Shown in pieces: positions 18,219-63,397 of a stretch of DNA of 64,000 nt (position 1 is its first letter; each line of letters opens with the position of its first letter). A program made the position numbers and the translations under genes. The notes beneath the pieces were generated by a model. The model searched no databases, was not told the DNA's origin, and worked only from the letters and a program-made list of their open reading frames with translations. Where the stretch lies: the NCBI RefSeq assembly GCF_026151205.1, contig NC_087077.1:186001-250000 (forward strand). Direction: 5' to 3'. Source of the DNA: Bolinopsis microptera. Its lineage: Eukaryota > Ctenophora > Tentaculata > Lobata > Bolinopsidae.

Positions 18219-18330
18219 CTCTGCAGCGGGTATCCAGATTTTTCTGCCTTCAATCTAATAAAGGACGGGATTATCTGTTAGTGTTACATTTAAAGATTTA
18301 ATATTTACCTGATTGTGATATAATTTTGAT

Positions 18331-27548: not shown

Positions 27549-29120
27549 TTAGACACTAACCCAGAGAACTGAGAAAGTTATATTGTCTTGGGCCTGAGGT
27601 GATCGATTGTAGTGATTGGGCAAGTATCGATTGTAGTGATCATGCCTATTATATTGGGCATGCGCAGGGTTGACCTTTACTAGTTTACCGACTTGACAAT
27701 ACGGGAATAGTTTAAGAGTTTTGTGAGCGCTGTCTGGATCGCAGTAGAGAGGCATTCTAGTCGAATTCCTGATTCGTGCTCCATCGTAAACGGTTATACA
27801 AGCGTAGACGTACAAATGGTAGTTCCCAAAAGATTTATCACAGCTAACTTTTGGGGTTCTATCCTGGTACAGAGTAACACTAACAGTAAACTGATTTTGT
27901 GCAGGTAATGTCAACAAAATTTCTTCGCCGAAGGTGGCTGCGGTCAACATTACATTGAAACTTTGTCGATCTTTCGGGATCTTACTGATTGCATTATACT
28001 GGTTTGGTAGAATTTGCAGCATATCCATAGCATTCTTTATATAGACCGTGCAGTATGCTTGAACGTTTATGTTATTCGGTGGGTGTCCTGACCAATGATG
28101 AATAGCCTTTGAGAGAATTTTTTGGACAATATCCAAGTCAGACGATGATTTATTGCTTGCAAGCCAAGACAGGAGACACTCTATGACACAAAACTGGTCT
28201 GATTTATCTGTAAATGCTGAAGAAAGCACACACATTCCATCTGCATCAAGGATCTTCCAGCACGAATAAAGACTCCCACTTTCTTTCATGAATCTTAATG
28301 ACTGTAACACGGTTATTTTTTCATAAAGTTTCATCTTATATCTGTTTAAATGCTTGTATTCCTTCAATGTTATATTGTCAAAATCTCCCATTTTCTCAAA
28401 AAGGTCTTTAAATTGAGTGCGAGGACATAGGGACATTGCATTCGAAATTCCGGGGTTTTCAAACGAATCCAATAAAAGTTTGTAGTTGGACTGGTCTAGG
28501 AGCATATTGACCCACGGAATATAATCCGGGATAAGATCTTGATGAAGCAGTATAGTGAGTAGTTCCTTCTTGTCTACAACTCCTGAGATAACATCGTCCA
28601 TGGCACTGTCAAGGTTCTTATACCTTCCATCAGTGCTATATGGTACGATTATTTCGGGTAGGTGTTGTGCGAAGAACAACCTACACGGTTTGTAAATATC
28701 TTCCTTTGAGCACGTCCACTTGCCTTCAATGGCCTTGGTGGCAACCATTGAACCATTGATCAACAAGCCTGCATTGTCCAAATTCCATCTATTTTCGGAC
28801 ATCCAATCCAAGACTTGCTTTCGAGCTCCAGGAATGTCAAAAGCTACCATGAACTTGAGAACATCTTGGAAGTTTTCCTCAGTCAGACTGACTGAACCAC
28901 CATAAAGAATGGTCAAACATTCTCTGACGTGTTTGTTGTCTGTAAGGAATAGTTCATTGTCCTCTTTTATATACTCTCTGAGCACAGAACTATGTTGGGC
29001 TAATAACATTGCACTACATTTAATAATTTCAGATTCCGTTACAATCTGAACTGAATCATTAAATTCATCCTTTTCCAGGAAGTACATGAAATCATTGTTG
29101 AACTCGAGCTTCACTGTCAT
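27549..29120 (-). CDS. BTB-domain protein, copy 2
   Basis: 523 residues from the ATG at 29120 (the open frame continues upstream without another ATG; the TTG at 29153 is not needed as a start). Very close to copy 1 over residues 1-370: BTB domain 1-105 with VQIVTESEIIKCSAMLLAQ and LTILYGGSVSLTEE, then a helical BACK-like region and a shared C-terminal half. It ends DNITFSVLWVSV-stop. Differences concentrate in the last 150 residues: copy 2 lacks about 15 residues before FTVSVTLYQD and has an Asn/His/Tyr-Arg repeat where copy 1 has a Met-rich one. Reading frame is kept throughout, so both are probably functional. The complete stop suggests copy 2 is nearer the parental form. Role as a cullin-3 adaptor is only inferred from the BTB fold. 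Confidence 0.8.
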   Translation of the reverse strand: MTVKLEFNNDFMYFLEKDEFNDSVQIVTESEIIKCSAMLLAQHSSVLREYIKEDNELFLTDNKHVRECLTILYGGSVSLTEENFQDVLKFMVAFDIPGARKQVLDWMSENRWNLDNAGLLINGSMVATKAIEGKWTCSKEDIYKPCRLFFAQHLPEIIVPYSTDGRYKNLDSAMDDVISGVVDKKELLTILLHQDLIPDYIPWVNMLLDQSNYKLLLDSFENPGISNAMSLCPRTQFKDLFEKMGDFDNITLKEYKHLNRYKMKLYEKITVLQSLRFMKESGSLYSCWKILDADGMCVLSSAFTDKSDQFCVIECLLSWLASNKSSSDLDIVQKILSKAIHHWSGHPPNNINVQAYCTVYIKNAMDMLQILPNQYNAISKIPKDRQSFNVMLTAATFGEEILLTLPAQNQFTVSVTLYQDRTPKVSCDKSFGNYHLYVYACITVYDGARIRNSTRMPLYCDPDSAHKTLKLFPYCQVGKLVKVNPAHAQYNRHDHYNRYLPNHYNRSPQAQDNITFSVLWVSV

Positions 29121-29230
29121 CTCTGCAGCGGTTCCAGATTTTTCTGCCTTCAATCTAATAAAGGACGGGATTATCTGTTAGTGTTACATTTAAATATTTA
29201 ATATTTACCTGATTGTGATACAATTTTGAT

Positions 29231-34636: not shown

Positions 34637-35670
34637 ATGGCATTACAACAGTCTGATACAGCAGATAAGATAATCGGTTATTCTCTTGCGATAATCCTTG
34701 GTGTTTCGTTGGTGGGCAACGTGTCAGCATTCTTCTACTTCTGGCCGAATAGACGCAAATCCCTCCCAAATAAACTCTACATCCTGATAGTTATTGTAGA
34801 CATCATCACCAGTGTCTCATCTGTTCCTGTCATATCTTCGCTTCTGAACAACAGGAAACCATCGCTTTTTTCTAGCTCTGCTTTATGCTACACCTATACT
34901 ATGGCAGCTAATTATGCAGGTGAGAATGTCAATGTTCCTGGTTGCTGTTTTGAGTATCACGAGAACTATCGCTATTGTCTTTCCACACAAAGTCAGAGAG
35001 ATCAAGACAAAGTTAGTGGTGATGGTAATCGGTGGCTATGCAGTTTTTATGATAATCATTGATGGGGTATTCCTTGCCCAAAGCTGGTTCACAACCTGAG
35101 TACAACCAATTCATAGTTGGCTGCACTCTGGAAAGTACGGAGACTATCCCGCTTGGAGCCAGAAATTTGTACGTTACCAAAGCTGAAATTGAAATCTTTG
35201 CACCGTCGGTAGCTGTTTTTGTGAGTTTCATAATTGGAATAGTAGCTCTGATGAAAAAGAAAGTTTCCCCAATTGCCTCCAACAAAGCTGTTACGACAGC
35301 CAAAATATCAAGACAAGTTTCCGTGACAATTGCTTTATTTGCAGCCGTATTTCTGGTGTGCAACACGCCTGCTATCATTATATACTCACTTTCATATTCG
35401 GTGGCTTATAAATACTCAGCAAAAGCAAGGGAATTCATTGGAGAAACAAAGTGGTACGGATATTTGATGATGTTTTGTTTCCCCTTGTTCCTAAATGCTG
35501 CACTCAACCCGTGTCTTTATCTGATTAGAATGCCGCGGTACAAGGACGTGACTAAACAGAGGATCTCCCTGCTTGCTCTTGGGGTAAGCAGCACTTTGAT
35601 CGGAATGCGTAGTGCTACTAGAGATACAGAGGGGAGAGACTCACAGCAACAGGCTTTGGAGCATGCGTAG
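34637..35670 (+). pseudogene. rhodopsin-type (class A) GPCR with two frameshifts
   Basis: Seven membrane segments are spread over three frames. Frame of ATG 34637: TM1 with GNVSAFFYF and TM2 with KLYILIVIVDIITS, to about 34915. Next frame, 34914-35099: TM3 ending SITRTIAIVFP (Arg of the DRY position kept, Asp and Tyr replaced) and TM4. Third frame from about 35060: the ECL2 Cys (IVGCTL), TM5, TM6 with VFLVCNTPA and TM7 with the canonical NPCLY. Two small indels, near 34914 and 35060-35100, break it, so it is a pseudogene unless they are sequencing errors or unseen introns. The ligand is unknown. The C-terminal tail carries a short tandem duplication. Confidence 0.75.
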
Positions 35671-35718: not shown

Positions 35719-37169
35719 TTGAACTTTACGGACGACTGGCTTGAACAATGGGCTACCACCCATTGTTCAGACAATCTCATTCTGGATCGGACAAGGTTTT
35801 TTCTTTACGAATAATTTGTTAATTATTGTAATTCAATGGGTGGTAGAAAGTGGCATAAGAAATAAGCATTGTAAATGATAAAGGCCAAAAACATTGTGGC
35901 TCAGTACTCGTTGATCTTTTGATAATGAGACAACAGTATTGACAATTTGTCTGGAAAGCTTATCCCAATGTTCAATAATGTACACCATGTTCCTACGCAC
36001 TTAACGCACTTTTAAAACCTCACGCACTTAACACACGAAACAAGTCAAAAATACGTACGAATAAATACCGTTTTTACTTTTTAGAAGATATTCAATATAT
36101 TGAATAATCACACTTTTTAAAAATAATCTTAGGCTACCATACTACTACTTACTAGTAGTAATATTTGGTTTACACTATACAGTGTACATTTACAATAATA
36201 CTGTCACCATGAAAGTCCATCTCTTATTAACTGATCTAAGGAGTAAGGAGACTATAAAAATAGTGGAAGCTTATTGTTAGAATATATTTACATAACTTAC
36301 CTGCAGGGGGCCCCAGGCTATAATGTTCATAAACAATAGTCATAGAGATTCGGCGGAATGACCTAGGCTGAGCGCCGCCCAGTAATTACATGACAAGATA
36401 ATAATAATAAATAATAACAAATGATAATAAAGATTATGGCCACATAGCCATCTCTACAAGGCTCAACCGAACTGCACTCAACTCGATTGCAGTTCACACA
36501 ATAGTATTTAAAGATATCTTTCTAGTATGAAAAGTAACTGTTTTTCATAACCTTTGTTTTTAATTTCTTGCTAATATTTTATGATCTGTTGTTTTAATTG
36601 TGTAAATGTGCCTCCGGAGAACGCACTTCACGCACTTTTCCCGAAAAAAAAATGACACACGAACCAACTATGTTGTACATTTTTGAAATGTCTCCATAAC
36701 AATGACGGCTAACAACTATTTAAAGGAGGCCGATTAAAAGTAGCTGTGTAAGTATAATTGATATCACGTAATATTTCGTGAAACAGGTCCTACTGCAAAC
36801 CACGAATCCATATCACTATCAGTGATACCAAGATGTTTGTCATGTATATTTAATTTAAATTTTGTTACTTGAGAATCGTAAACAGAGGGTTCTTGCTTCA
36901 AAGGGGCAAGCAAAATCGTTGATTTATCGTAATAATAATATTAATGGCATAACTATTGACTCATGATGATTTATATTATTGATGTCATGATGATGCTAAT
37001 GCTCTAATGGTATTATCATGACAATGCCAAAGGTATATTAATCTTACTTATAAAGCAAGCTTGTTCATAGTCATTAGCATCTCTGTTTTGTGCAGTTTTT
37101 GTTACATGTTGATAATCTAGCTCTCTTATCTCTATTTTATCGCTACATTATAACTGCCATTGTGCGGGT
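35719..37169. other. AT-rich stretch without a gene; one interspersed repeat
   Basis: At 36300-36400 lies a reversed copy of a repeat of about 90 bp (AACCTGG/GGCGGAATGAC type) also found at 42040-42120 and 44665-44765. Otherwise nothing recognised. Confidence 0.45.
36300..36400 (-). repeat. short interspersed repeat, copy 1 of 3
   Basis: Reversed it reads GCGCTCAGCCT, CATTCCGCC, ATGAACATTATAGCCTGGGG, matching 42040-42120 and 44665-44765. Possibly a SINE-like or short DNA element. Confidence 0.6.
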
Positions 37170-37179
37170 ACTGTGTTTT

Positions 37180-38690
37180 TACTTTATACAAGGACGCTCT
37201 AGCTCCCACCATAGCCAAGCTCTGGCAGCTATCCTTTGATACTTCGGACATCGCTGAGATGTTCCGCTCCCAGAGTATCATCCCTATCTTCAAGAAGGGG
37301 AGCAAGGCTTTAGCCGCTAACTACAGGCCGGTTTCCCTGACCTCTCACCTCATCAAACTCTGTGAACGCATCATGCGCAACCAGATGGTCAACTTCCTTG
37401 AACGCAACAACATGTTCAACCCTGATCAGCATGGTTTCCAAAAAGGCAAGAACTGCCTCACTCAGCTTCTCCATCACATCGAGGATATAATCTGCGATCT
37501 CAACCTCGACAAAAATGCTGACGTGCTCTACCTCGACTTCAGCAAAGCCTTTGATAAGGTTGACCACAAGATTCTTCTCAAGAAGATCCAGGCCTTTGCA
37601 CTTTGGTATCCGTGGTAAGCTCTACGACTGGATAGCCAGCTTTCTTACTGGCAGAAAGCAGCATGTTATCGTGGATGGGGTCATGTCCACGATCATCGAT
37701 GTCATCAGTGGGGTTCCTCAGGGTACTGTCCTAGGTCCCCTTCTCTTCCTCATATACATTGACGACATCTTCTCCGTTGTCAAGCACAGCAAGATCAAAG
37801 TGTTTGCAGATGACTCGAAGCTCCACAAAGATATATCTTCCCATATCGATCGCATCCTTCTCCAAGAAGATCTTCTCTCGGTTGTGAATTGGGCTGATGC
37901 TAACAACATGGAGCTTAACGAGGAAAAGTTCCAGCTTCTACAACACGGCAAACTACCAGACTTGAAGCAGCCCTACATCCTACCATCTGGAGAGACTCTT
38001 AAGGGCTCTGACCACGTGAAGGACCTGGGTGTCTATATCGACCCAGACCTCAACTGGCGCACTCACATAGCGATGAAGTCTGCCAAAGCCAGAAACATGG
38101 CTAGCTGGGTGCTACGCACCTTCATCTCCAGGGATGTAACGACCATGATGCTCCTGTACAAGTCCTACGTACGATCTCATCTGGAATACTGCTGTCCTCT
38201 GTGGTCTCCTCACATGCAGTGCGAAATTATCAAACTCGAAGCAGTTCAACGATCCTTCACTGCTAAAATCCAGGGTCTTGGAAGTCTCAACTACTGGGAA
38301 CGCCTCCGTCGCCTGTCTATGTACTCCCTTCAGAGGCGGCGTGAGAGATACACTATCATCCTAGTTTGGAAGATCTATAACAATCTCGCTCCAAACAGTA
38401 TGAACATCAACTTCCGCGAGACCTCACGATACGGAACTACGTGTATACGACCACTATGGTCCTCCAAGTACAATAGTGTCAATAACCTGAGGTTCAACTC
38501 CTTTGCCTCTAGAGCCTCTGCACTGTACAACGTGGTCCCTCCTAGCATCAAGTCCCTCCTAACCTTGACCACTTTCAAACCTGCTCTTGATGCTTTCCTC
38601 AATGAATTCCCTGACACTCCACCAACACCTGGGTACACTGGACAGAACAGGAACTCAATGCTGGAGTGGGCCGGTGGCACATGTCTCTGA
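37180..38690 (+). pseudogene. non-LTR reverse transcriptase with one frameshift
   Basis: The frame at 37180-37618 carries IIPIFKKGSK, NYRPVSLTS and LYLDFSKAFDKVDH. The next frame (to the stop at 38690) resumes at FGIRGKLYDW with GVPQGTVLGPLLF and the catalytic FADD (37803-37814). A one-base loss near 37600 separates them. Endonuclease and ORF1 are missing. The C-terminal part (LYKSYVRSHLEYCCPLW) is typical of CR1/Jockey-group RTs. Confidence 0.85.
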
Positions 38691-46190: not shown

Positions 46191-48938
46191 AATAAATAAA
46201 TAAATAAATAAAGTCAATTTTTACAGCACAGCAATATATATCTAAATATCAGATCCTCTGTAATCATAATGTATAAAAAAAAGGAGCTTTTCTCTGTGCT
46301 GAAGGATGAATCAAGGCAGATCATGGTTCTGTTAGCAGGCCACCCTAGTTATGGACAATACGTATATATAAAATAATTAAATTATAATTTTAAAATTGTG
46401 TCAAGATTGAACTAAAACATAACTCAGGGTAAAATAGACGTATTCCCTTCGTCAAATTAACTATTTACAATACTAAACTTAAACGAACTCCGGGTAAAAT
46501 AAACGTAATCCCTTTGTCAAACTTGCTATTTACAATAAGTTAATAAATTAATACGGTTGAAAATTATTTCATATTCAATAACAATGTAGCATCAATATAA
46601 TTGATACAAATGAGGAGCATACATAGCAGTGAGAATTGCACATAACAGGAGGACTGGAGGTATGGAGCAATAATGATTGACAGTGCACCTTTCCACTGAT
46701 GTTCCTAATTTCCTGTAATAGCTTAATAGGCATGGAAATACTTTGATTGCAGGGGATAAATTGGATTCACTTATGTACTGAGATAACTTAACCGAAATAA
46801 CATAACTGCCTAGATACATTGGCTAGTGTTGGGTGGGATCATGAATTTATCGTAAGAGTTATCCCCTTGGTAATTCTCATCAGTTAGCACCATATTCATA
46901 AGAGTTTCTTTGTATAACTTAGAAAATTTCTTAACGTCGTCACACTCTCTAAGGGACTTTGGTAATATGTTCCAGGCCTTAGTTCCTAGATAGTTAAACT
47001 CCTTGTGAGATCTTGATTTAGGAGTATAAAGATTGCAGTTTTCTGCCTCACGTGATCCACCAGAAATATACGAGAATTTCCCGATAAAATGCTTTGGACA
47101 TGTTTCATTGATTATACGGTACATATATGAGCTAAGATGAACCTGTCGTCTCAAATGGAGAGGAAGCCATCCCATATTTTTGTATACATTAACCGACCTC
47201 TCTCTGATGTTTACATCTAGGGCTATTTTAGCAACCTTTTTGTACATGATATCTAACTCTCCTAGTCGTTTTTTATATGTTCTTGACCAGATGGTGTCTA
47301 AGTAGTCAAAATGTGGCAACATAAGTGCATTAGCAAACATCTTCCTGAACTTAAGAGGGAGAAGTTTTTTTGATCTATACATAGCACCAATTCTTTTGGA
47401 TATCTTTTTCTTAATGTTATCAATATGTTCATTAAATGTCAATCTGCTGTCAACTATAAGTCCAAGGTACTTATGGGATTTAGTTTCACAGATTACCAAA
47501 GTAAGGTCATCACAAATTTCGACAAGGATGGCATCAAGGTTAGGCTTAGAGTCAAGGATCATTAGTTTTGTTTTTTCATTATTCAGGGATAGTTTATTAG
47601 CCTGAAGCCATCTGATAACTAATTTCAACTCTTGTTTGATGTTACCATAGTTTCCTCTAGATATATTGTCAAAATATAATGCACCGTCATCAGCAAATAG
47701 ATAAGGTTTAGAAAATAGGCATGCATTAGGCAGGTCATTGATAAAAATGCTGAATAGAATTGGTCCTAATATACTTCCTTGAGGCACTCCAGAGTTCAAT
47801 GAATGTAAACTGCTTATCCTACTCCCAACTCTAGTTTGCTGTAATCTATCTGTGAGGAAGCTCCTAAACCAGCTCAATGCAGTATCTTTTATTCCATAAT
47901 GCTTCAGCTTTTGAATGAGAATATCATGGTTAACAGTATCAAATGCCTTTCTGATGTCCAGGAAGATAATTGCAGGATGCTTGGCACTGTTCTTAGCAGT
48001 AAATATACGATCAAACAGATCTAACATGAGATAAGTTGTAGAGTGATCTTTACGGAAACCATATTGATGCTCTGAAAGTATTCCCTTTTCATCAAGATAT
48101 TGAGTCAGTTGGGAGTTCACACAAAATTCGATGCACTTTCCAAGAATCGGTAAAATTGAGATTGGTCGATAATTACTAGGATTCTCAGTATCACCATCCT
48201 TATGGATTGGGGTGACTTTTGCAACCTTGCAGCTGTTTGGCATGATGCCACTGGATAAACTCAAATTTACAAGATGTGTTAATGGAGCAATAAATGCAGG
48301 TAAAATTTGTCTAAACACTCTCAATGGTATATGATCATTAGTGGATTTGCTACAAGGGATACTTGCCACATAGTCTAAGATATTGGACTCAGTTATTTCA
48401 GTAAAGCTATTCAAGCTGGTCTCGTTGTCAATCTGCTCATTTTGTAGATAAGATAGAAATTCATTTTCATTTTCCAGCTGCACTTCTGCTTGGATCTTTG
48501 GACCTATTTCAGCAAAATATTTATTGGTGGTTTCAGCATCAAGATTGTTATTGATATTGTTAGCTTTAACAGGCAGATTTGATGCTGTCTTTATCGTTTT
48601 CCATACACCCTTTAGATCATTCATGGCACACTTGGCTTTCAGTTCTGTTGCTAAGTTAGTCTTCCTATTAATTCTAGACAAATAGGTTGAATAGTTTCTC
48701 TGCCGTTTATATGCCATCCATAATGAGTCACATTTATTACAGTGTATAAGACCATTTGGATGTATACGTCTGTTCTTGTTGTGTGTTAAAAATTTACGGT
48801 AAAGTTTCCCTTTCAATTTCTTACTTTCTAAAAATTCTGGAGATGGCTTATGGATGTAATCACTATGGCACTTAATTTGTTTAATTGGACAGAAGTGATC
48901 ATAGTAGTGATCAATATGTTCGTTTAAACCATCAACTA
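46191..48938 (-). mobile_element. 5'-truncated LINE inserted between Y and X
   Basis: Ends (minus strand) in a (TTTA)n tail, seen as AATAAATAAATAAATAAATA at 46186-46213. The other end cuts the RT frame at 48938. The undisturbed junction survives at 50688-50700 (GAGGAATAATGTTCATG). Confidence 0.85.
46810..48938 (-). CDS. non-LTR reverse transcriptase, N-terminally truncated
   Basis: The frame is open from the insertion junction to the stop at 46810, about 709 codons; the first Met-like codon is not a true start. Upstream linker NEHIDHYYDHFCP, then RT motifs VTPIHKDGD, NYRPISILP, GFRKDHSTT, FLDIRKAFDTVNH, GVPQGSILGPILFSIFIND and the catalytic FADD near 47690. A C-terminal LKFRKMFANALMLPHFDYLD thumb region is typical of the Jockey/CR1 group. 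Endonuclease and ORF1 are lost. No internal stop or frameshift, so insertion is recent. Confidence 0.85.
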
Positions 48939-49059
48939 ATGTTCATGTTTAGATATAACGCCAATTTCAAATGTCATAGTACCTTAGTTGTATTTATTTG
49001 GTCTAGTCCCCAATTCCATTTGATATTTTCCATACTGATCTCATATAGCTAGAATTAAG

Positions 49060-51188: not shown

Positions 51189-54100
51189 GTATCTTCAAAC
51201 TCTCCCGGGCAATTGCCCATAAGATTCTAGGTAGCCCCGTTGATGGGAGGTTGTTCAGTGATGTTACCAAGGCCCAAAATAGATTTTCCCCACGTTCTCG
51301 TAGATCTGTAATCCAGTCATGGTAGTCAAACTGATGTGCGAAATCTGCTGCTGTTGCGATAGACCTGTGCGTGCTGGACATCCATTTTTGATTTGTCAGA
51401 TGTGTGACAAAATAATGCACAAAAAATGTAAAACTGATGATAACATAACCAAATTTCGAGATGCAACATACTGCAAAATATGCACTGATGCCAATGATAT
51501 TGTACGGTACAACCCTTTCTACCAAGCTCCACACTTTGCAAACAATGGCCTCATTGATGATGAGCCAGTTAATTATATTGAATCTATCTACAATAGCTCA
51601 AAGATTCTTGAAAATTGCAAAACATTCTCCATAACTGAGTTGAATGCTACTGTCCTACCTAAAAATTCAGCTAAATATTTGTCCAAATTATTCCTAAATA
51701 TTGATGGAAATGCATCAAACTTTGACAACTTTGCAGTTGAGCTGTCTTGTATCGACCACAAATTCTCTGTTATCGGTCTTGCAGAAACAAATACTAATCC
51801 CGAAAATGGAACTCTGTATCAGCTTAACGGATACTCCTCCTGTTACCAATCACGTTATTTTTGTCAAAAGAAAAACCAGTTCAAGGGTAAAGGATCAGGA
51901 GTGTGTCTTTACCTGCACAACTCCTTTAACTTTAACAAAATCCCTGGCTTATCTCTCTGTAATGAACACATAGAATCACTGTTCGTATCCATCACTAGCT
52001 TGCAAGACCCAACTGTTGTAGGGGTTATATACCGTCCCCCAAACGCATCACTTGAACTGTTCAACGAAGCATATGAAGGTATTCTCTCAAAACTGAATGG
52101 CAAAAAAGTATATATTCTTGGTGATTTCAATATAAACATGTTGAAGGACCCATCTCCATCAGAGGACAAATTCCAAGAAATAATATTCAACAACGGCTTC
52201 ATACCAACCATATCAGTACCAACTCACCAAATGCCTGGCTGTTCCAGGACCTGTATTGACAATATCCATACCAATGTAGTAGATCAAACCCTTATTTCTG
52301 GTGTGATATCTGACAAGATCTCCCACCATCACCCTATATTCACTCTTATTGAACTTTCCCCTGACTCTGTGCCAACACCTGATTCATCAGACAAAATTAC
52401 TATACACTACGACTATAGTAATGCTAACTTAGAAAAGCTCTGTCTTGAAATAGAAAACGATGTAGATAGGTTCCACCACAGCTGTAACACATTTGATTCT
52501 TTCATGCAGTTATTTCAAGAAAAGATAGATTTGTCTTGCAAACTTCTAACTCCTAGAACCACTAAACGTAACAGCATAACCAACCCTTGGATTACCCAGG
52601 GCCTAATTAATTCCATCGATAAGAAAGCTAGGTTGTATTTCGAATGGAAGAAGACTTGTACATTAAAACTACCTGACGGGGACCCAAACAAGCACATCTA
52701 CTACAAGGAATTCGACAAGTTTCTCAAAAGGTCAATAAATATGGCAAAGGCTATGTGCTATACTCAAAAATTCGAGAAGTACAGCATGAATTCGAAAAAG
52801 ACTTGGGAAGTTATAAATGAACTCCGTGGTAAAAATTTGTCTAGATGTAAGGACGATTTTGTCATAGATGGCCAGAGAGTTACTTGCAGACGAATAATTG
52901 CTAACAAATTTTGTGAATATTTTACATCTCTTGCAAGTAATCTCAATAAAAATGTATTGTCAAACAATAGTATTTCTCTGGAACCAGTAGAATCATTTGC
53001 TCAGTTTATGTCTAATTCAGTATCTGACTCCATATACCTAGAAGAAACTAATGAAGACGAGATTGTCGAGGTCATCAGAGATTTTCAAAATGGCAAGGCG
53101 AGTGACATACCTATAATCGTTGTAAAAAAATCGGCAAAGCTCATTGCTGGTACCTTGGCCAGGCTTTACAACACATGTATACAAAGTGGTACATTCCCAA
53201 GTATATTTAAAACTGGTAAAGTTATTCCTATTTACAAGAAAGACAATAAGGAATGCATTGAAAATTATCGGCCTGTATCAATATTACCTTTATTTGGAAA
53301 AATCTTTGAGAAGATCATTTACAAACGCCTTTATAATTTCTTCACATCTAAAGGTGTACTAACAGACTCACAGTTTGGATTTAGAAAAGGCCATTCTACC
53401 ACTCATGCTCTACACAAATCTATAGACTCCGTTACAAAGTCTCTGGCTAGCAATAAACATGTATTGGGCATATTCATTGACTTGAGCAAAGCCTTTGACA
53501 CCCTTGATCACAATATTCTTCTAAGCAAGTTAAATTCCTACGGTATTAGGGGTTCAGCACTTACCTTACTTAAAAGCTATTTGACTAACAGAAAGCAGTA
53601 TGTTATGTATAACGATGTACCATCAGTAACAATGGACGTGAAATTTGGAGTACCACAAGGGTCAATTCTTGGGCCACTACTCTTCCTACTGTATATGAAC
53701 GATATAGTAAACTGTTTTTCAGACAGTGAGGTGAAATTTGTACTTTATGCTGATGACACTAATATCTTCATATCAGGACCATCTAGAGAAGCAACATATA
53801 AAAAAGCCAACCTAGTACTTAAACATGTCTCGATTTACATGAAATGTAATCTACTTCATATCAATATGTCCAAATGCTGCTACATACATTTTAAACCTGC
53901 CTCTGAATATGATGACACCTGTGCGCGGACTAGACCATTTGCTAACCTGCTAGATGAATCTAGATCAATATTCATCGATGGTAAGGTTATCACTAAAGTC
54001 AAGGATACCAAATTCTTAGGTGTTGTTATAGATAGTAAGCTAAACTGGATTGCCCACATGCACTACATCCGTAAAAAGCTGCGGACCATGACTGGTGCAA

Positions 54101-55317
54101 TCTGTAGAATCCGGCACTCTATACCTGCTGAACTATACTTGAAAATATATAATGCTCTTTTTGAATCACATCTCAGTTATGGTATAAGTGTTTGGGGTGT
54201 TGTCATCAAGGAACGGTCCAATGACAGTCTTTTTATCACTCAGAAGCACTGTATAAGGATCCTTTTCGGTGATCTCGACTCATATCTAGATAAACAATCA
54301 ACATGTGCAAGAACTAGACCATATGGTATGCAAAGATTAGGCCATAAACATTTTGAAAAGGAGCATACAAAACCCATTTTTAATAGACTAAAAATTCTTA
54401 CAGTTCAAAACTTGTTCAAGTACCATTGCATTTCAGAATTCTCTAAGATTATCAAGTACCACTGCCCATACTCCCTTTATGAGGCCATCAACATTTCAAA
54501 CCGTACAACGAGTTTAACGGTTATTCTTCTTAATAAATCAAATACTTTTTTGTTCAATGCAGCCAAGCTTTGGAACACTGTTCATAAAAAAATTCTAACC
54601 TCAAGCAATTGCCTAGAAACTTCCATTAACTTGATAAAATTGAGAACCAAGGCACTATTATTACAAGTACAGGCTGCTGATTTAAAAGATACTTGGAATC
54701 CAAACAATTTTAAATTGCAGTAATCTATTCTTATCGCAGCAGCACACACTTAACACACTTAATATTACTATCATGATTGTATTATAGACTGAAAAGCTCT
54801 CAGATCAATTTTGGGCGTTTTTAACCACTTGTTGTAATGTTTTTAATTATTTAATATCTTAACTTAACTAAATTTTTATTCATATCGAATTAACAAATAA
54901 TATTTGATAATTTATTTGATAGTTTAGTCTGATATTGATATTGACTATATTGATATTGTTATTATTGAATGAAGTTAACTCCAGACGTACATAATATTAC
55001 TTCTTTTAACAAAGGGACTTGGAGTATAAACGACCAAGTTAGCATACATTTTCAACCAACCAAGAATTCTGGAGGCAAAGGTGGGTGCGTAAACTTTATG
55101 GTCTGTACTCTCCGATCCTGTATCACCCAGGATTCTTTTCGACGTTTTTGGTAAAAGGTATATACCTTCTAGTCAATCTCTTGCTACTCCAAGTCCCCCA
55201 AGATTTCTAAACTAAAGTTCGTCCTAGTTATATTATATTATATAAAATATATTTTTTGTTTGCTGTAACTGATACTAAATAAAATTGTTGTTTTCCTGAA
55301 TTGTTGTTTTCCTGATA
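51189..55317 (+). mobile_element. apparently full-length LINE (single-ORF type)
   Basis: About 4.1 kb: a 130-bp leader, one 1134-residue ORF, a 590-bp 3' region, and a tail of two ATTGTTGTTTTCCTGA units (55285-55316). Short 3'-terminal tandem units rather than poly(A) are a feature of CR1-like elements. It splits copy B of the 750-bp repeat. Confidence 0.8.
51319..54723 (+). CDS. LINE polyprotein: zinc finger, AP-type endonuclease, reverse transcriptase
   Basis: 1134 residues, no stop or frameshift. Residues 8-55: a PHD/RING-like Cys-His cluster (CEICCCCDRP, CQMCDKIMHKKC, YCKIC). About 115-345: apurinic-type endonuclease with LAETN (Glu156), YRPPN, GDFNIN (268-273) and a C-terminal SHHHPIF where SDHxP is usual. 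About 600-870: RT with PIYKKDNKE, NYRPVSILPLFGKIFE, GFRKGHSTTHAL, FIDLSKAFDTLDH, FGVPQGSILGPLLF and YADD (810-813). It copies the element's RNA at the nicked target site. Intact catalytic motifs suggest recent or current activity. The Asp-to-His change before the last endonuclease His is worth checking. Confidence 0.92.
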   Translation: MVVKLMCEICCCCDRPVRAGHPFLICQMCDKIMHKKCKTDDNITKFRDATYCKICTDANDIVRYNPFYQAPHFANNGLIDDEPVNYIESIYNSSKILENCKTFSITELNATVLPKNSAKYLSKLFLNIDGNASNFDNFAVELSCIDHKFSVIGLAETNTNPENGTLYQLNGYSSCYQSRYFCQKKNQFKGKGSGVCLYLHNSFNFNKIPGLSLCNEHIESLFVSITSLQDPTVVGVIYRPPNASLELFNEAYEGILSKLNGKKVYILGDFNINMLKDPSPSEDKFQEIIFNNGFIPTISVPTHQMPGCSRTCIDNIHTNVVDQTLISGVISDKISHHHPIFTLIELSPDSVPTPDSSDKITIHYDYSNANLEKLCLEIENDVDRFHHSCNTFDSFMQLFQEKIDLSCKLLTPRTTKRNSITNPWITQGLINSIDKKARLYFEWKKTCTLKLPDGDPNKHIYYKEFDKFLKRSINMAKAMCYTQKFEKYSMNSKKTWEVINELRGKNLSRCKDDFVIDGQRVTCRRIIANKFCEYFTSLASNLNKNVLSNNSISLEPVESFAQFMSNSVSDSIYLEETNEDEIVEVIRDFQNGKASDIPIIVVKKSAKLIAGTLARLYNTCIQSGTFPSIFKTGKVIPIYKKDNKECIENYRPVSILPLFGKIFEKIIYKRLYNFFTSKGVLTDSQFGFRKGHSTTHALHKSIDSVTKSLASNKHVLGIFIDLSKAFDTLDHNILLSKLNSYGIRGSALTLLKSYLTNRKQYVMYNDVPSVTMDVKFGVPQGSILGPLLFLLYMNDIVNCFSDSEVKFVLYADDTNIFISGPSREATYKKANLVLKHVSIYMKCNLLHINMSKCCYIHFKPASEYDDTCARTRPFANLLDESRSIFIDGKVITKVKDTKFLGVVIDSKLNWIAHMHYIRKKLRTMTGAICRIRHSIPAELYLKIYNALFESHLSYGISVWGVVIKERSNDSLFITQKHCIRILFGDLDSYLDKQSTCARTRPYGMQRLGHKHFEKEHTKPIFNRLKILTVQNLFKYHCISEFSKIIKYHCPYSLYEAINISNRTTSLTVILLNKSNTFLFNAAKLWNTVHKKILTSSNCLETSINLIKLRTKALLLQVQAADLKDTWNPNNFKLQ

Positions 55318-56091: not shown

Positions 56092-57637
56092 ATGAGTCAG
56101 AAAAGAAAGAGGACTCAGGACAAGGATTCCGATGACAGTCCTGAGCATCGAATCAGGTATGTTGAAATGAAAAATTATTAATTCTATCATAATAATGTTT
56201 AAATATCATCAAGCAGTGTGACACGAAAATCGAATCATTATAACATACTTTCTTTGTGTTTTGCATTTTTCATTTCACACTGCCTACTTGCTAAAATCTA
56301 TCCGCCATCAATTTGATTTTGATTTTCTAATTTGCATTTATTTCTGTTTCAGACAAGATTCTGGCTACAACTCTCAATGCCATTCTCCTGAGTACTTTGA
56401 TATAAACGAACATGCAGACTTTATTCCAAATTATAACAATATGTCAAATTACCTTTTTGACATGGATGAAGGGTGGGTAACACTTTTAGTTTCATATTAT
56501 TATAATAATCTTTTGATGAAATCAACTTTTCTACATAATTGTTCAAAATAAAACATTGATCATTGATTTGACAAGGTGATTGATAATAATAATCTGGTAA
56601 CAGTAAATTTTACTGCTTCTTTTATTGACAGAATGTTACACAGAAAAAGGGTTATTTTGTCAATGAAACAAGAAATTTTTCAATGAAGCTTGCATTTCAG
56701 TGTTAATACCATGACCAGTTCGAATTGGCAAGATCAAAGGATTTGTGGACAAAAAGACTGCACTTACAATGTAAGTTACATTGATCTCGTGAACGATGCT
56801 CATCCATCTAAGCTTAAAGAATTCTCTACTTCTGCCGAAGTCACCAATCCAGATATACACAATGTTGATATATACTCAAATGATGAGTACATACCTTCCA
56901 TGCCTCCTCTGCTGTTAGAAGAAATTGTTTGTGAAAATACTATGAATCCTCAGAATACTTTGGTGTGCGAACAGGACATGAACACTAGCCAGCAAAATGA
57001 TTTTGCATTTGTGATGGATGCCCAAAACTTTCATTATGTGGTGCCCAACCTTCTGAAAAATGCACATACCACACAAAGGTTCAAAGTGGAACTTGGGGAT
57101 GAGCAAATTCTTCGCTGGAGCATGGCAGACATACAATATGGCACCATCGAAAAGCTGATAATAGAACATGGAAAAATCTGTGTATCAAAAATCGACAGCA
57201 AGAAAAAGATAGTCAAGTTTGCGTCAAAGAATATAAGCAATAAAAGATCTGTGGCATTCTGTCATAGCATCATTCGAGGCATCGCCCTGGCTGAAATGAT
57301 GGAGACACTAGAGAAAGAAGTGACAGAAGACAAGATAGCAAGGAAAAAGCTCTTGAATAAATTTACCAATTGTAGTAGAAGAGATCCAGGTCGTAATGCA
57401 GGCATGAAATTGGAAAAGGAATTCCTTGCTGTCCATAAACAACTACACAAAGACAGTGAATATTTGGAGATAGATCGTTATTTTCATAATAAATCGATTT
57501 TTGTGTTTGACCCGGAAGGGTATCTTAATTTATTTGTTTCACCTGAACTTTGTAAAAAATCGTATTATTTTTACCAGGGGGAGGAGGATCTTTTTATGAT
57601 TAAAAATTTCAAAGGATTTTGTCGTGTTGATGATTAA
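56092..57637 (+). CDS. gene A: unrecognised protein with KRKR start, DSGYNS motif and basic C-terminal domain
   Basis: Three exons, 56092-56156, 56353-56472 and 56701-57637; GT-AG introns, both phase 2; 373 residues. MSQKRKR gives a possible nuclear signal. Residues 24-29, DSGYNS, fit DSGxxS, the phosphodegron read by beta-TrCP ubiquitin ligases (known in IkB and beta-catenin; use here is inference). About residues 35-170 are acidic and low in conservation. From about 175 to the end is a basic domain shared with gene B: KRSVAF, IRGIALAEM, KKLLNKFTNCSRRD, KLEKEFLAVHK, then IFVFDPEGYLNLFVSPELC and IKNFKGFCRVDD. I do not recognise this domain. No membrane segment or signal peptide. A regulated nuclear, perhaps nucleic-acid-binding, protein is a guess. 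Upstream exon not identified. Confidence 0.8.
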
Positions 57638-57871
57638 GACTAAGTGGTTAATATATATTATATATAGGGTTTATCAACCAATCTTTTTTTCATAAAAAAT
57701 ATATAATCAATGTAGTGATTCTATCTTTTTACGAAAAGCTGTAAATAATTCTTTTATGGATGTGTCTGACTTTAAAAAATACTTATTCTATAATAGAAGT
57801 ACAGCACATTTTTTCATCACTGTAATGTCACAGCAGCCACTGGAACCACAGCAAACACATACATACACACT
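57638..57871. other. 3' flank of gene A
   Basis: AT-rich probable 3'UTR, then an ACACATACATACACAC simple repeat at 57853-57870 bordering the next element. Confidence 0.4.
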
Positions 57872-59512
57872 AGGTAGGTTCATAAAACCAAAACATATCC
57901 AAATAATTTTTTAACAAAGCTTATCTGACGTTCATAAGGCTAAATAACAATCAAAAAAATTTCCAAGTTCCAACTCCACCGGGAAAGTCGATCTAGCAGA
58001 GAAGATTATCGACATCCTCAAATACTGGAGTCCACAAAGGAGCATGTACTATTCTGCAGCAGCTCCTCAATCGACAGATCCTCTGGATGGCCTGCAACAC
58101 CACGTCCTGGAGCTTGTAGTAGGATCTGCCTTCAAGCAACTGTTCAGTGACACAGCATCACCCGAAGTTACCTTGTTTGAGATCATGAAGACCAATTGAA
58201 ATTGGGGAGAGCTCGACCTGCAGAACATCGTCCTCACTGATATTCCCACTTGCTACAGGACCGACGTAGAAGACCTTCTGCCCTCCACATCAACAATCAG
58301 CCCAGAGGAGACTACAAGGAATTCTTAGAGCTTGCTTAAGTAATCCTTGGAGAAAGCATTGAGAGGAAGAAAGGATGTACGTATTCCAGATACAAAGACC
58401 TGGAGCTGATCATCATGGCAGATGGATGGCTAAATTAATTTACATCCTGAAGATAGCGCTTCTTCTTCATCAGATCCCACTTCACTGGATGAAGAAGAAA
58501 GAAGTGCAGAGGATGGCTCTCTTTGTTGTTTTTGTTTACCTAAAAGCTTGGTTCAGTGCTCCCTTCCTTGAGTCTGCAGCCTCCAACGACATCCATCTGT
58601 TCCAGAGCCTACAGAAGTACAAAAGTGTGGACAGAAAGGTAGCAGCCATCACTACAACAGTCCTCAACAGGCATACATGGTACTTGACGGAAGAGCTTGT
58701 CCCACTCTCCTTGTTTGATGACAATCTAGCTCTAGATCAGAGAACTCTCCTTGCAATAATATGTCAATTTATTTTACTCTACAATCTAAAACTATTATCA
58801 ACATGGCTAAATGCAAGATGCCTCGTAGAGAACTTCCCTTTATCTTCTGGAGAAGCTACCATACTCTAAACTTCCCACCAATGGTGATGTATTTCGGAGA
58901 CTAATGTTTGAGATCCAGGAAAATCATGGATCTATCAGTCTATCCACTGCATCTATCACCGTTATGGAAGAACTGCGCAAGGTGTGGGAATACGCCGCGC
59001 TGGTCATAAGGATATCCTTCAAACTAACTCTAGCATAGTGAGGAAGATTTCCTCTCTTCACGAATCTTACAAATAGTTAATGAAGATTTCACGACGACAA
59101 ACGGAATTGTTTAAGAAGAAAGAAGATACCTTCACGAAGTCCTTGGTCCTTGGAGCTACTCTTTGATGTTACCGTGAAGTCCATCCATGGATCAGGCCTT
59201 AATACAGCTGAAGACCGTGAATTCCTTCTACGCCACTGGGACAAGACAGTGAGTTCTACACGTGACAACGGTACAAAGATCCAAGAAACTTGCTCGAGAA
59301 GAACACTACCGGAACTACTACTGAGCCCTCTGACGTCTCCCCTTCAGGCAGCCCCGGCCTGTTAAAATTTGGTATAAAATATGGGCGTGGCATGTAATCG
59401 ACTTTCCCGGTGGAGTTGGAACTTGAGTTGGTTGTTATTTAACCTTTTGAACGTCAGATAAGCTTTGTTGAAAAATTATTTGGATATTTTTTGGTTTTAT
59501 GAACCTACCTAA
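57872..59512. mobile_element. decayed DNA element with 120-bp inverted ends
   Basis: Arms 57872-57992 and 59397-59512 are complementary with scattered changes and indels (TAGGTAGGTTCATAAAACCA at the outer end, CCACCGGGAAAGTCGAT at the inner). The interior is more GC-rich and carries the remains described at 58375-58869. Size 1641 bp. Lies between the two paralogous genes. Confidence 0.8.
58375..58869 (+). pseudogene. decayed transposon protein fragment
   Basis: A 164-codon frame whose middle reads YLKAWFSAPFLESAASNDIH and HTWYLTEELVPLSLFDDN. I remember similar phrases (a WYL...E..LS.FDD pattern) in proteins repeated many times in invertebrate genomes, so a transposon origin is likely, but I cannot name the family. 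Coding-like remains continue to about 59365 in other frames. Confidence 0.4.
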
Positions 59513-61926
59513 TACACACACAGAGGTTAGATATTTCAAATAACTGCACACTGCACAGAAGAAGATAGACTTCGCAAACACCTTGGCCTTCCTCTTCCAG
59601 CAAATTGTGGTTCTGTGCTTGATAGTACAGTGCTGTACCATCTAACCGTATAGACTGTGTGTGATGAAGATCACTGACGCCTTGATGGTTACGTCAACTC
59701 CCAGAACCTCATCCATTGGAGTTCTACTAAGCTGGTTGAAGTGGTGCTGAAAGCTTTTTTCCTGAAAAGGTGACAATCTGGTGCGCCATCAGCTCTTTGG
59801 CATCTGGGACCCCACTTTCACAAGGAAAATTGATGCAGACTATTTAGTACTTAAAGGAGCTGATCCTTTCAGCTGACAGCACTCCTAAACTTGAAACCCA
59901 GAAAGGAGCATAATGGATAATTAATCAAAACCTTTCACACCGTGCCTATTGGGGCAGTATCCAGGTAGCCCGACCCCTGTTCACGAACAGGTGTTTGCGA
60001 ACACCTGTTCGTGAACAACTTATGACATGATGGTTACCAGATTATATGACTGCATAATAAGAGTAACCCCTTGACTCTTGAGCCGTGTCATGGCTTATTA
60101 AACAATTAAGCAACCTTACGAGATCAGTTCACATCATGCATCTTGGTATCTTGTCAAGTGGACTCAAGCTGGTAAAACCCTTATTGTCTCCAGAGCCAAC
60201 CCAAGCTTTTGCGTTTTCTGCAACAAAAGGCATGCTGGTATATCATGCGCTGCTCATGACCCTGTAGCCCCTTCTGATGCCGGAGGTCTTGCTAATTCCT
60301 CTGCTCCTCGTGATCGTGTCCGCTTGAAATGTAACAATTGCGTTGTTATGAATGTCCACCGAGAATCTTCAATCCTCGATGATATTCTACATACTACTAC
60401 AAAGAAGATAACAAAGCTTTGTCCTGTGCATCAACTCCCGGACTCCATTCCACCAACTCCTCAAGCCACGCTAGATCGAGACAACACTGAGCCCTTTACT
60501 AGTCCAACTACACAGCAAGGAATAAGGATCACAAACATCCTTGCTCCCACCACCTCCAGCTGATGTATTGCAGCCTAGTCCTCCAGCTGATCATCCCCCT
60601 TCTACAAACAGAATAGGACACATTCGGACCAATCAACTATTCACGAACACCTTTTCGCGAACAACTGTTCACTAGATGGTACAGAAATGAAGATCACTGG
60701 ACACTGCCACCTTGACGGTTATGTCACCTTCCAGAACCCCATTCTACTAAGCCACAGCAAAGATAAACACATACACACACATACACATACACTTGAACGC
60801 CTAGTTTATGCTGTTAGGAACTGTAATTAAGGTTCTGCAATTAAAGTTCTCTGAATGAAATCAGTTTTGAAAAAATTTAATCCATTAAATGGTTTTAATA
60901 ACTGCACTGTCAAGATTAGAAAAGTGAAAAAACTCAGAATTGTTCTTTTTATTATAAAATATGATATTGTATAGTAATTGATGTTAAATAAACATAATAT
61001 ACCATTAACATATTATATATATATAATATTTGGTTCACTGATACCAAATTCCGGTAATTTCAGTTTCATTTCATCAAAATATGTAAATTGCTGTCTTAGC
61101 ATTGTATTGTTATGTTATGGTATCTCAAGAGATGATCGTTTCCCTTTAAAAAAATTGTATTCCACAATTTCACTTTCGAAACATTTTTTAGTCTTGAAGT
61201 TTGGCTATATTAATTATTTTTTTAATAAAAATGACTCTTTTTTTTTACAGTACTGTATTTTTTTATTTAGAGTGATTTGTTCGTGATTTTTCTACATATT
61301 TTTCTATGCAATTTTTCATGCATTTTTTTCATGCATTTCCACGTCCTGCACAGCAGTTTGAAGCTTCTTTAAAGCACCTTTTTACCAACATCATCAGCAC
61401 GATTAAAATAACATAACCGCTAACCAGCTAACCAAAGCTATCCAGAAAATGTTTATTTCCTAGCTCAAAGCTCCGTCGCACTCATTTTATGGCAAAAGCA
61501 GTACAAAGAAGACAGTTTTGTGGCAGACCACACCCACAGTGATCGGCGAAATTTTACGAAAACTTAAACCCATATCTCTAACCCCTGAAATTTGGGTTAA
61601 ATTCTGAAACAAATTACTTGACTTGCATAGCACCATGTAAAGCACGGTGTATTTGCAAATTTATTGCTTGATTAAAAATGATATTGAAATGAATCCCAAA
61701 CTGATGTTAATATAATATAAAATGACTAAATCATAATGAATCTTTCTTTGTCTTCTTAAACACAAAGATCACTTGTCTCACTGTTTCAATTTACTGACTT
61801 TTACGAACAGAAATAAATCAATACTGTTTAAATTATAATTTGTTTCGATTTCCAGATCTTAATCATCTTGAAATTCTTGACGATTTTCCTCTTGGTAACT
61901 AATTTTTGATGCTTCATACTTGTAGC
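59513..61926. other. intergenic stretch between genes A and B
   Basis: 59979-60016 is a perfect hairpin with 17-bp arms (GTTCACGAACAGGTGTT, loop TGCG); related ACGAACA motifs recur at 60643-60670. 60100-60600 looks like further decayed transposon coding sequence (ANPSFCVFCNKRHAG-like in shifted frames). The rest is AT-rich, with TA repeats near 61010. No gene. Confidence 0.45.
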
Positions 61927-63397
61927 ATGGCATTAAAAAGGAAGCGTGATGAGGATGATAATCCAAAGACTCGCTACCGGTAAAACAAATATTTACCATT
62001 TCTAACACAACATAGAAAATTAAGCTAGGGTTATCAAGCAAACATATTTGTTGCTCCTAAATTTCAAATTGAATACATGCTTCATCTTTCAGAGAAGATA
62101 AAACTATATAAAACCATTTTCAGGCAAGACTCCGGTTACCAGTCTATTAGCTGTGAATTGAACCAGTTTGACTCTGATATTGTGTATCCAGATCAGGAGG
62201 AGGTCTCCACGAATGGTTCCGTAAGTGATGAGATGGAATCATCAGACACATGGTAATTTATTCTATAGAAACATAATCCGTTCACCGTTGCCAGTTTTTA
62301 TCTTGAATTGTTTCTTAGTATCTTGAGCAGATTGTATTTTATAAATCTATGATCTACATTCTACAATATAGTATAGATTTAAACTGGTCATTTTAGGCCT
62401 CATTTGGAATGATGATAAATCATATTTCAGGTGTCCCGGTTATAATATAATGGAGATAGAAGATCAGAGTTATAATCCATATGTAAAAATACCTGTGCCC
62501 TTCACAGGGCTGTCATGTCTTGATATGTTGTTATCAGTTGAAGAAGAAATAGATCATACAGAACAAGATCAATTGCTTGATGAGCTCTTCCGGGAGTCAG
62601 AAAATTTTAGTATAGTCCCCTCTCCTCTTCTTGGAATAGAGATAATCGAAACAAAGATGGAAGGTCACAGTCATGGCTTTAATGACGAGAGAAAACAAAA
62701 TATCAAATCAAGTTTAGATCATGATGATATAATATGGAAGCTGAACGTCAAAAATTTTGATGTACAAGTTATGAACCTACTAATAGGTTGTCATGCCTAC
62801 CAAAAATTTAAAGTCCAGGGTGAAAAAAGTGGAGACACTTCCAATGTAAATGTTAAAACATGGGGGATTTCTGACTTTAATTGGAGCAACCTAAAGAACA
62901 TTTTAGAGTCCGACGGAGATGTTGAGATAACGAAAGAACGCCCGGGGAGAAAACAAAAGTGGGAAAAAGTTGAAAGATTTTGTAAAAGAAACATAGTTAA
63001 GAAAAGATCTGTAGCATTTGCAGAAAATCTTATTCGAGGTTTGGCATTACATGAAATTAATAAAAAGCTGAATGCTAATGCAAAAGATGTTATGGATCAG
63101 AAAGAACAAAAGGCTTTGAAGAACAAATTTACCAATTTTAGTCGGAGAGATAGAGGGGCAGGAAAAAAGTTAGAGGAACAATTCCTCAATGAGCATAAAG
63201 TGCTTAACAAGTTCAGTGGATGTAGAGAAGTTGACGAATATTTTAATAAAATAACGATATTTATTTTTGATTTTGAGGGACATCTAGAGTATGTCAGCCC
63301 CACGCTCTGCGAAGAATCAGTGTATTTGTATAAAGGGGACTCCTGTGAGTTTTTCTTGATAAAAAATTTGAAAGGATTTTGCCGAATCGAAGATTAA
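61927..63397 (+). CDS. gene B: paralog of gene A
   Basis: Three exons, 61927-61979, 62124-62252 and 62431-63397; introns phase 2 and 2 as in gene A; 382 residues. MALKRKR start, then DSGYQS at residues 20-25 at the same place relative to intron 1. The middle is acidic and diverged (SVEEEIDHTEQDQLLDELF). The C-terminal domain is conserved: KKRSVAFAENLIRGLALHEI, KNKFTNFSRRDRGAGKKLEE, DEYFNKITIFIFDFEG, VSPTLCEESVYLYKGD and IKNLKGFCRIED. A GTAAGT at 62221 inside exon 2 is a good alternative donor, but would break the frame into exon 3. ATTAAA at 63600-63605 may be the poly(A) signal. Confidence 0.82.

What the first reader, a model, noticed from the sequence alone, without database searches (positions are those of the whole stretch)
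56092..63397. Tandem paralogs of an unrecognised gene family with a conserved DSGYxS motif
Seen: two three-exon genes with identical intron phases (2,2), both starting M-x-x-KRKR, both carrying R-Q-D-S-G-Y-x-S exactly at the intron 1 junction, an unconserved acidic middle, and a conserved C-terminal domain of about 200 residues ending IKN[FL]KGFCR[VI][ED]D. Known: DSGxxS is the beta-TrCP phosphodegron. Inference: a nuclear protein family whose turnover is signal-controlled. The C-terminal domain matches no family I know. Conservation of the motif while the neighbouring 100 residues diverge argues that it is functional.
Basis: partly seen in the sequence, partly recalled or inferred. Interest (0 to 1): 0.78.

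Follow-up and report, generated by a model that had tools for sequence, protein, structure and literature searches.

The report
Comb-jelly gene family with degradation tag
Two neighbouring genes, very probably of a comb jelly, belong to a small protein family of unknown fold, and several of its members keep a short tag that in other animals marks proteins for signal-controlled destruction; the tag looks real, but it was not tested here and what the rest of the protein does is open.

Summary
In detail: two three-exon genes with phase-2,2 introns, M-x-x-KRKR, RQDSGYxS across intron 1 and a shared ~200-residue C-terminal domain. The host is very probably the ctenophore Bolinopsis microptera, not a cnidarian: 264.65 Mb, 13 large contigs, largest 26.2 Mb. 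Searches found the domain at 8 loci, 7 on contig C6, one on C1. It has no match over cut-off in Pfam or NCBIfam, none under E 0.08 in PHROGs, none up to E 10 in PDB sequences. A pattern for the splice junction plus DSGYx[ST] hits the genome 5 times, all in this family; its reversed control 0 times. Between the two closest copies the motif's fixed residues change only silently. The genome has a beta-TrCP gene. Best reading: a beta-TrCP-type phosphodegron on a probably nuclear, perhaps taxon-restricted family. Degradation, localisation, expression and the domain's function are untested. Against: 3 of 8 loci show no DSGYxS in what was recovered, and the domain's fold could not be predicted.

The parts
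56092..56156 (+). gene 1 exon 1 (MSQKRKR..., basic start, possible nuclear localisation signal), phase 2 end
   Evidence: reading frame and donor GTATGT; same exon in the copy L012
56353..56472 (+). gene 1 exon 2, opens with (R)QDSGYNS across the intron 1 junction
   Evidence: acceptor TCAG; junction pattern hit at G000:C6:242350
56701..57637 (+). gene 1 exon 3 with stop: diverged middle, then C-terminal domain (about 57002-57634)
61927..61979 (+). gene 2 exon 1 (MALKRKR...), phase 2 end
62124..62252 (+). gene 2 exon 2, opens with (R)QDSGYQS across the intron 1 junction
   Evidence: junction pattern hit at G000:C6:248121
62431..63397 (+). gene 2 exon 3 with stop: diverged middle and C-terminal domain (about 62726-63394)

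Best explanation
The two genes belong to an eight-locus, possibly ctenophore-restricted family of probably nuclear proteins. An N-terminal basic cluster takes the protein to the nucleus. Just behind it, R-x-D-S-G-Y-x-[ST] is phosphorylated on a signal and then bound by SCF beta-TrCP, which ubiquitinates nearby N-terminal lysines and sends the protein to the proteasome, as for IkappaB-alpha and Emi1. The conserved, basic and partly helical C-terminal domain does the actual work, probably binding DNA or a nuclear partner. Shown here: gene structure, family, motif conservation, constraint on the domain, and a beta-TrCP gene in the genome. Inferred: phosphorylation, binding, degradation, nuclear location and the domain's role.
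For: Motif at the same splice junction in 5 of 8 loci, and nowhere else in the genome under the pattern used; reversed control 0. In gene 1 vs L012 four of the five fixed codons of DSGY_S differ, all silently (TCT/TCG, GGC/GGT, TAC/TAT, TCT/TCA), and the only amino-acid change is at x (N to Y). Third positions vary across the five copies, so the constraint is on protein rather than on splicing letters. Y at the hydrophobic place equals Emi1's DSGYSS, described as the wild-type degron for beta-TrCP (PMC9606124, one passage seen). beta-TrCP D domain over cut-off on C11 (44.9 vs 25 bits); exon pieces joined for a search match F-box/WD repeat-containing protein 1A best in PDB, E 2.6e-94, and further blades read [33 protein letters not shown] and [27 protein letters not shown]. 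Domain dN/dS 0.18.
Against: 3 of 8 loci (C6:3.340 Mb, C6:3.433 Mb, C1) show no DSGYxS in what was recovered. Exon 1 was not found for the copies at 3.430 and 3.433 Mb, within about 2.1 and 1.4 kb upstream and with a filter for basic residues. The copy at 3.423 Mb has T, not S, at the second phospho position. R at -3 also fits basophilic kinase sites. No transcript, phosphorylation or binding evidence. The nuclear signal is a basic cluster only. In 2 of 10 pairwise alignments the motifs did not line up because the flanks cannot be aligned. N-terminal dN/dS is 0.74, so most of the stretch around the motif is weakly constrained.
Confidence: 0.5

Rival explanations
1. The conserved stretch is a phosphorylation or docking site of another kind: R-x-x-S read by a basophilic kinase and perhaps 14-3-3, or another short motif, without beta-TrCP.
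For: R three residues before the first serine in the four copies whose exon 1 is resolved.
Against: G, Y and the last S/T are kept as well, which RxxS does not need; IkappaB-alpha has the same R-x-D-S-G start (recalled, no call).
Confidence: 0.25
2. The genes are young, fast-diverging duplicates with little function; the motif persists only because the copies are recent.
For: Gene 1 and L012 lie in a duplicated block (window 55.4-64.0 kb vs C6:3323.5-3341.3 kb, in pieces of 75 to 96% identity), and N-terminal dN/dS is 0.74.
Against: Gene 1 vs gene 2 synonymous sites are saturated (158.8 differences at 200 sites, dS not computable), yet RxDSGYxS is identical in 7 of 8 places, x excepted. The domain is under constraint, dN/dS 0.18. 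The domain frame is open in each of the seven C6 copies; the TGA that one search reports for L012 lies ahead of the domain, and its exon 3 frame is open.
Confidence: 0.1
3. The C-terminal domain is a very diverged form of a known fold or DNA-binding family that profile searches miss, so the family is an ordinary lineage-specific offshoot. This can be true together with the degron reading.
For: The first ~66 domain residues fold as beta-alpha-beta-beta-alpha-beta with fair confidence; the conserved core N-x-F-x-N-x-x-R-x-D-...-G-x-x-L is basic and lies in a low-confidence helical part of the model.
Against: No match over cut-off in Pfam or NCBIfam, none under E 0.08 in PHROGs, none in PDB by profile up to E 10; best Foldseek E 0.42; best VIA Z 6.8 over 62 residues (a piece of an ATP-grasp ligase), within the range of unrelated matches.
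Confidence: 0.4

Closest known systems
IkappaB-alpha (NFKBIA), substrate of SCF beta-TrCP
   Same: N-terminal R-x-D-S-G-hydrophobic-x-S with lysines upstream (IkappaB letters recalled, no call).
   Different: No ankyrin repeats found by Pfam; instead a basic start and an unmatched C-terminal domain.
Emi1 / FBXO5, substrate of SCF beta-TrCP
   Same: DSGYSS degron (one passage of PMC9606124) has the same Y and spacing.
   Different: No F-box or zinc-binding region found by Pfam.
beta-TrCP / F-box WD repeat protein 1A
   Same: Not a relative but the proposed reader; a matching gene lies on C11.
   Different: A different protein; binding not tested.

Membership tests
SCF beta-TrCP substrate (canonical DSG-phi-x-S phosphodegron) | D-S-G-hydrophobic-x-S/T in the protein | tested here: met
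   5 of 8 loci; 4 of these 5 end in S, one in T. Both window genes have it.
SCF beta-TrCP substrate (canonical DSG-phi-x-S phosphodegron) | motif conserved beyond its surroundings | tested here: met
   Higher identity in the motif than in the rest of the N-terminal part at p<0.05 (one-sided Fisher, uncorrected, pairs not independent) in 7 of 10 pairs; not in g1-L012 (too close), g1-L015a and g2-L014 (motifs misaligned); L015a was entered from the motif on, which helps its alignments. Only silent changes at fixed residues between g1 and L012.
SCF beta-TrCP substrate (canonical DSG-phi-x-S phosphodegron) | phosphorylation-dependent binding, ubiquitination and turnover | not testable with these tools
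   needs experiments
IkappaB family | ankyrin repeats | tested here: not met
   No Pfam match up to E 10 in genes 1 and 2; in the frames searched for the other loci only unrelated matches below cut-off
Emi1/FBXO5 | F-box and zinc-binding region | tested here: not met
   as above
Rel/NF-kappaB | Rel homology domain | tested here: not met
   No Pfam match of this kind in the proteins. A whole-genome PF00554 search was also empty, but nothing rang in its control, so absence from the genome is not shown
ATP-grasp small lobe (best structure match) | shared fold over the domain | tested here: inconclusive
   Z 6.8 over 62 residues of a model with mean pLDDT 51.9

The most novel reading that the evidence does not exclude
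A ctenophore-specific class of nuclear, probably DNA-binding regulators with a new fold, switched by beta-TrCP degradation of the regulator itself: an IkappaB-like signal tag wired directly onto a lineage-specific effector, beside or in place of the Rel/IkappaB system of other animals.
Probability: 0.2. Interest if true: 0.75.

Novelty: new variant of a known kind. Interest (0 to 1): 0.42.

Why it matters
[quoted passage not shown] A family with an unmatched domain and a textbook degron would show which regulated-degradation circuits this lineage built by itself, and it offers a simple two-serine test in ordinary cell lines.

Tried and rejected
Structure: two AlphaFold jobs with only the two window domains as alignment gave mean pLDDT 51.9 and 45.6. 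Foldseek against PDB had no match below E 0.42; VIA best Z 6.8, mostly ATP-grasp pieces within about 1 to 2 Z of each other, treated as uninformative. Only model 1 was searched; the viral structure library was not searched. Alignment A5, which holds one paralog, was made for a scan and then not used.

Relatives elsewhere: viral contigs gave no pattern match for P0001; tblastn of P0005 against phages gave none. Genome contigs was not scanned. No eukaryotic protein collection is on hand, so restriction to ctenophores is untested.

Family size: the tool warns that its counts are lower bounds; 8 loci came out of five protein searches.

Organism: a stalked jellyfish (Haliclystus octoradiatus, 262 Mb, nine chromosomes; start of abstract seen) was considered and dropped because this assembly has 13 large contigs. 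A COX1 search of the genome was empty, so there is no mitochondrial check. The empty NF-kappaB search was dropped as support for a ctenophore because its control was silent. Identity rests on size, contig lengths and Table 1 of PMC11797021 (passages seen); that table gives 346 scaffolds, this assembly has 232 contigs.

Literature: DSGYxS gave 0 papers; DSGYSS with Emi1 gave 1, of which one passage was seen; ctenophore with beta-TrCP gave 6, listing only; the listings showed no such family in the rows seen (20 of 88 and 8 of 1,933). Tree of the 8 domains: only gene 1 + L012 is supported; the C1 branch is too long to place.

Upstream of the C1 gene two short frames hold DTGSAT and KRKR; they are not in the exons that I read and were taken as chance.

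Splicing-signal conservation was considered and rejected because third codon positions vary.

Full report
Observation. The two genes are as described. Gene 1 has exons at 56092-56156, 56353-56472 and 56701-57637, gene 2 at 61927-61979, 62124-62252 and 62431-63397. Both have two phase-2 introns, TCAG acceptors and GT donors, and open frames of 373 and 382 residues. The proteins are 38% identical. KRKR, RQDSGYxS and the last ~200 residues are shared; the middle is poorly conserved. Splicing is read from sequence only.

Host. The assembly has 264,652,675 bases in 232 contigs. C1 to C13 are 15.2 to 26.2 Mb; C14 is 198 kb and C15 168 kb. The 13 add up to about 258 Mb, so the other contigs share the remaining 6.6 Mb. 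Bolinopsis microptera has 265 Mb, 13 chromosomes, the largest 26.2 Mb, N50 20.8 Mb and GC 38.5% (Table 1 of PMC11797021, passages seen). C11 here is 20.83 Mb. I take the host to be this ctenophore with high but not full certainty; scaffold counts differ (346 vs 232), and no marker gene was compared.

Family. Protein searches of the genome find the domain at 8 loci: the two window genes, C6:3.325, 3.340, 3.424, 3.431 and 3.433 Mb, and C1:11.83 Mb. The tool calls such counts lower bounds. The seven C6 copies lie on the + strand. The window pair was duplicated as a block: window 55.4-64.0 kb matches C6:3323.5-3341.3 kb in pieces, with gene 1 pairing with L012 and gene 2 with L013. The C1 copy, as I read it, has its domain split by more introns and a long C-terminal extension. 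Tree support is weak except for gene 1 + L012.

Motif. The pattern YAG, one purine, a K/Q/R codon, then D-S-G-Y-x-[ST] (first serine as TCN, last residue as TCN or ACN) hits the whole genome 5 times: the two window genes, L012, L014 and the first gene of L015. The reversed control hits 0 times. The peptides are QDSGYNSQ, QDSGYQSI, QDSGYYSQ, RDSGYSTA and QDSGYQST. Between gene 1 and L012, four of five fixed codons of DSGY_S differ, all silently, and only x changes residue, while the N-terminal 165 residues have dN/dS 0.74 and the domain 0.18. In pairwise comparisons the motif is more conserved than the rest of the N-terminal part at p<0.05 (uncorrected, pairs not independent) in 7 of 10 pairs; the other three are the recent pair and two pairs in which MAFFT did not line the motifs up. 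Three of 8 loci lack the motif as far as recovered. L013 has lost intron 1 with the motif but carries DSGINT ahead of its domain; shuffles give such a motif in 20 of 20000. That is a post hoc observation on one gene. For the 3.433 Mb and C1 copies no DSGYxS was found upstream, but their first exons are unresolved.

Reader. Pfam's beta-TrCP D domain hits C11 at 44.9 bits, cut-off 25. Neighbouring frames encode the F-box and WD40 pieces. Pieces joined for a PDB search match F-box/WD repeat-containing protein 1A best (E 2.6e-94), with identical stretches at HTGSVLC, RGIACLQY and HEELVRCIRFD. By recall these segments hold residues that contact the phosphodegron; this was not tested on a structure here.

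Domain. No Pfam match up to E 10 for genes 1 and 2. The frames of the other loci gave only matches below cut-off, best E 0.042. PHROGs gave nothing better than E 0.08 and NCBIfam nothing better than 0.049 for the 8 members; PDB profiles gave no match up to E 10. With two sequences AlphaFold reached mean pLDDT 51.9; residues 1-60 have block means of 73 to 90 and residues 61-70 62, forming beta-alpha-beta-beta-alpha-beta; the rest is not interpretable. A second model was worse, 45.6. Structure matches are weak. The columns kept in the 8 members include N-x-F-x-N-x-x-R-x-D-...-G-x-x-L or nearly so, a basic stretch that fits nucleic-acid or partner binding; that is inference.

Mechanism. Best reading: nuclear entry by the basic start, activity by the C-terminal domain, and removal by SCF beta-TrCP after phosphorylation of DSGYxS. 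The same motif type is a degron in Emi1 (DSGYSS, PMC9606124, one passage) and, by recall, in IkappaB-alpha (with R at -3 as here). It would work like these, but is no member of their families: no ankyrin repeats or F-box were found.

Verdict. Observation confirmed; degron reading plausible (0.5); domain unidentified; ctenophore restriction untested.

Noticed in passing
window 57871-59511: A DNA element with 96-nt, 91% complementary inverted ends lies between the two genes; related DNA follows the gene 1 copy.
   Followed up: partly
window 16452-18254 and 27549-29177 (-): Two BTB-domain frames on the minus strand, closely similar by eye, about 9 kb apart.
   Followed up: partly
window 51304-54723 (+), 46810-48942 (-), 37154-38690 (+): Large open frames that read by eye like non-LTR retroelement reverse transcriptases, not searched; the first ends 1.4 kb before gene 1.
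   Followed up: no
window 34637-35670 (+): Two overlapping frames that look like a GPCR split by a frameshift or intron; the first has a weak Git3 match below cut-off, the second none.
   Followed up: no
L013 2879-3751: The gene 2 copy lost intron 1 and DSGYxS but has DSGINT just before the domain, a possible moved degron.
   Followed up: partly
L016 3900-4900: A long array of CTGTGTACTGTGCA-like repeats lies upstream of the C1 gene exons.
   Followed up: no
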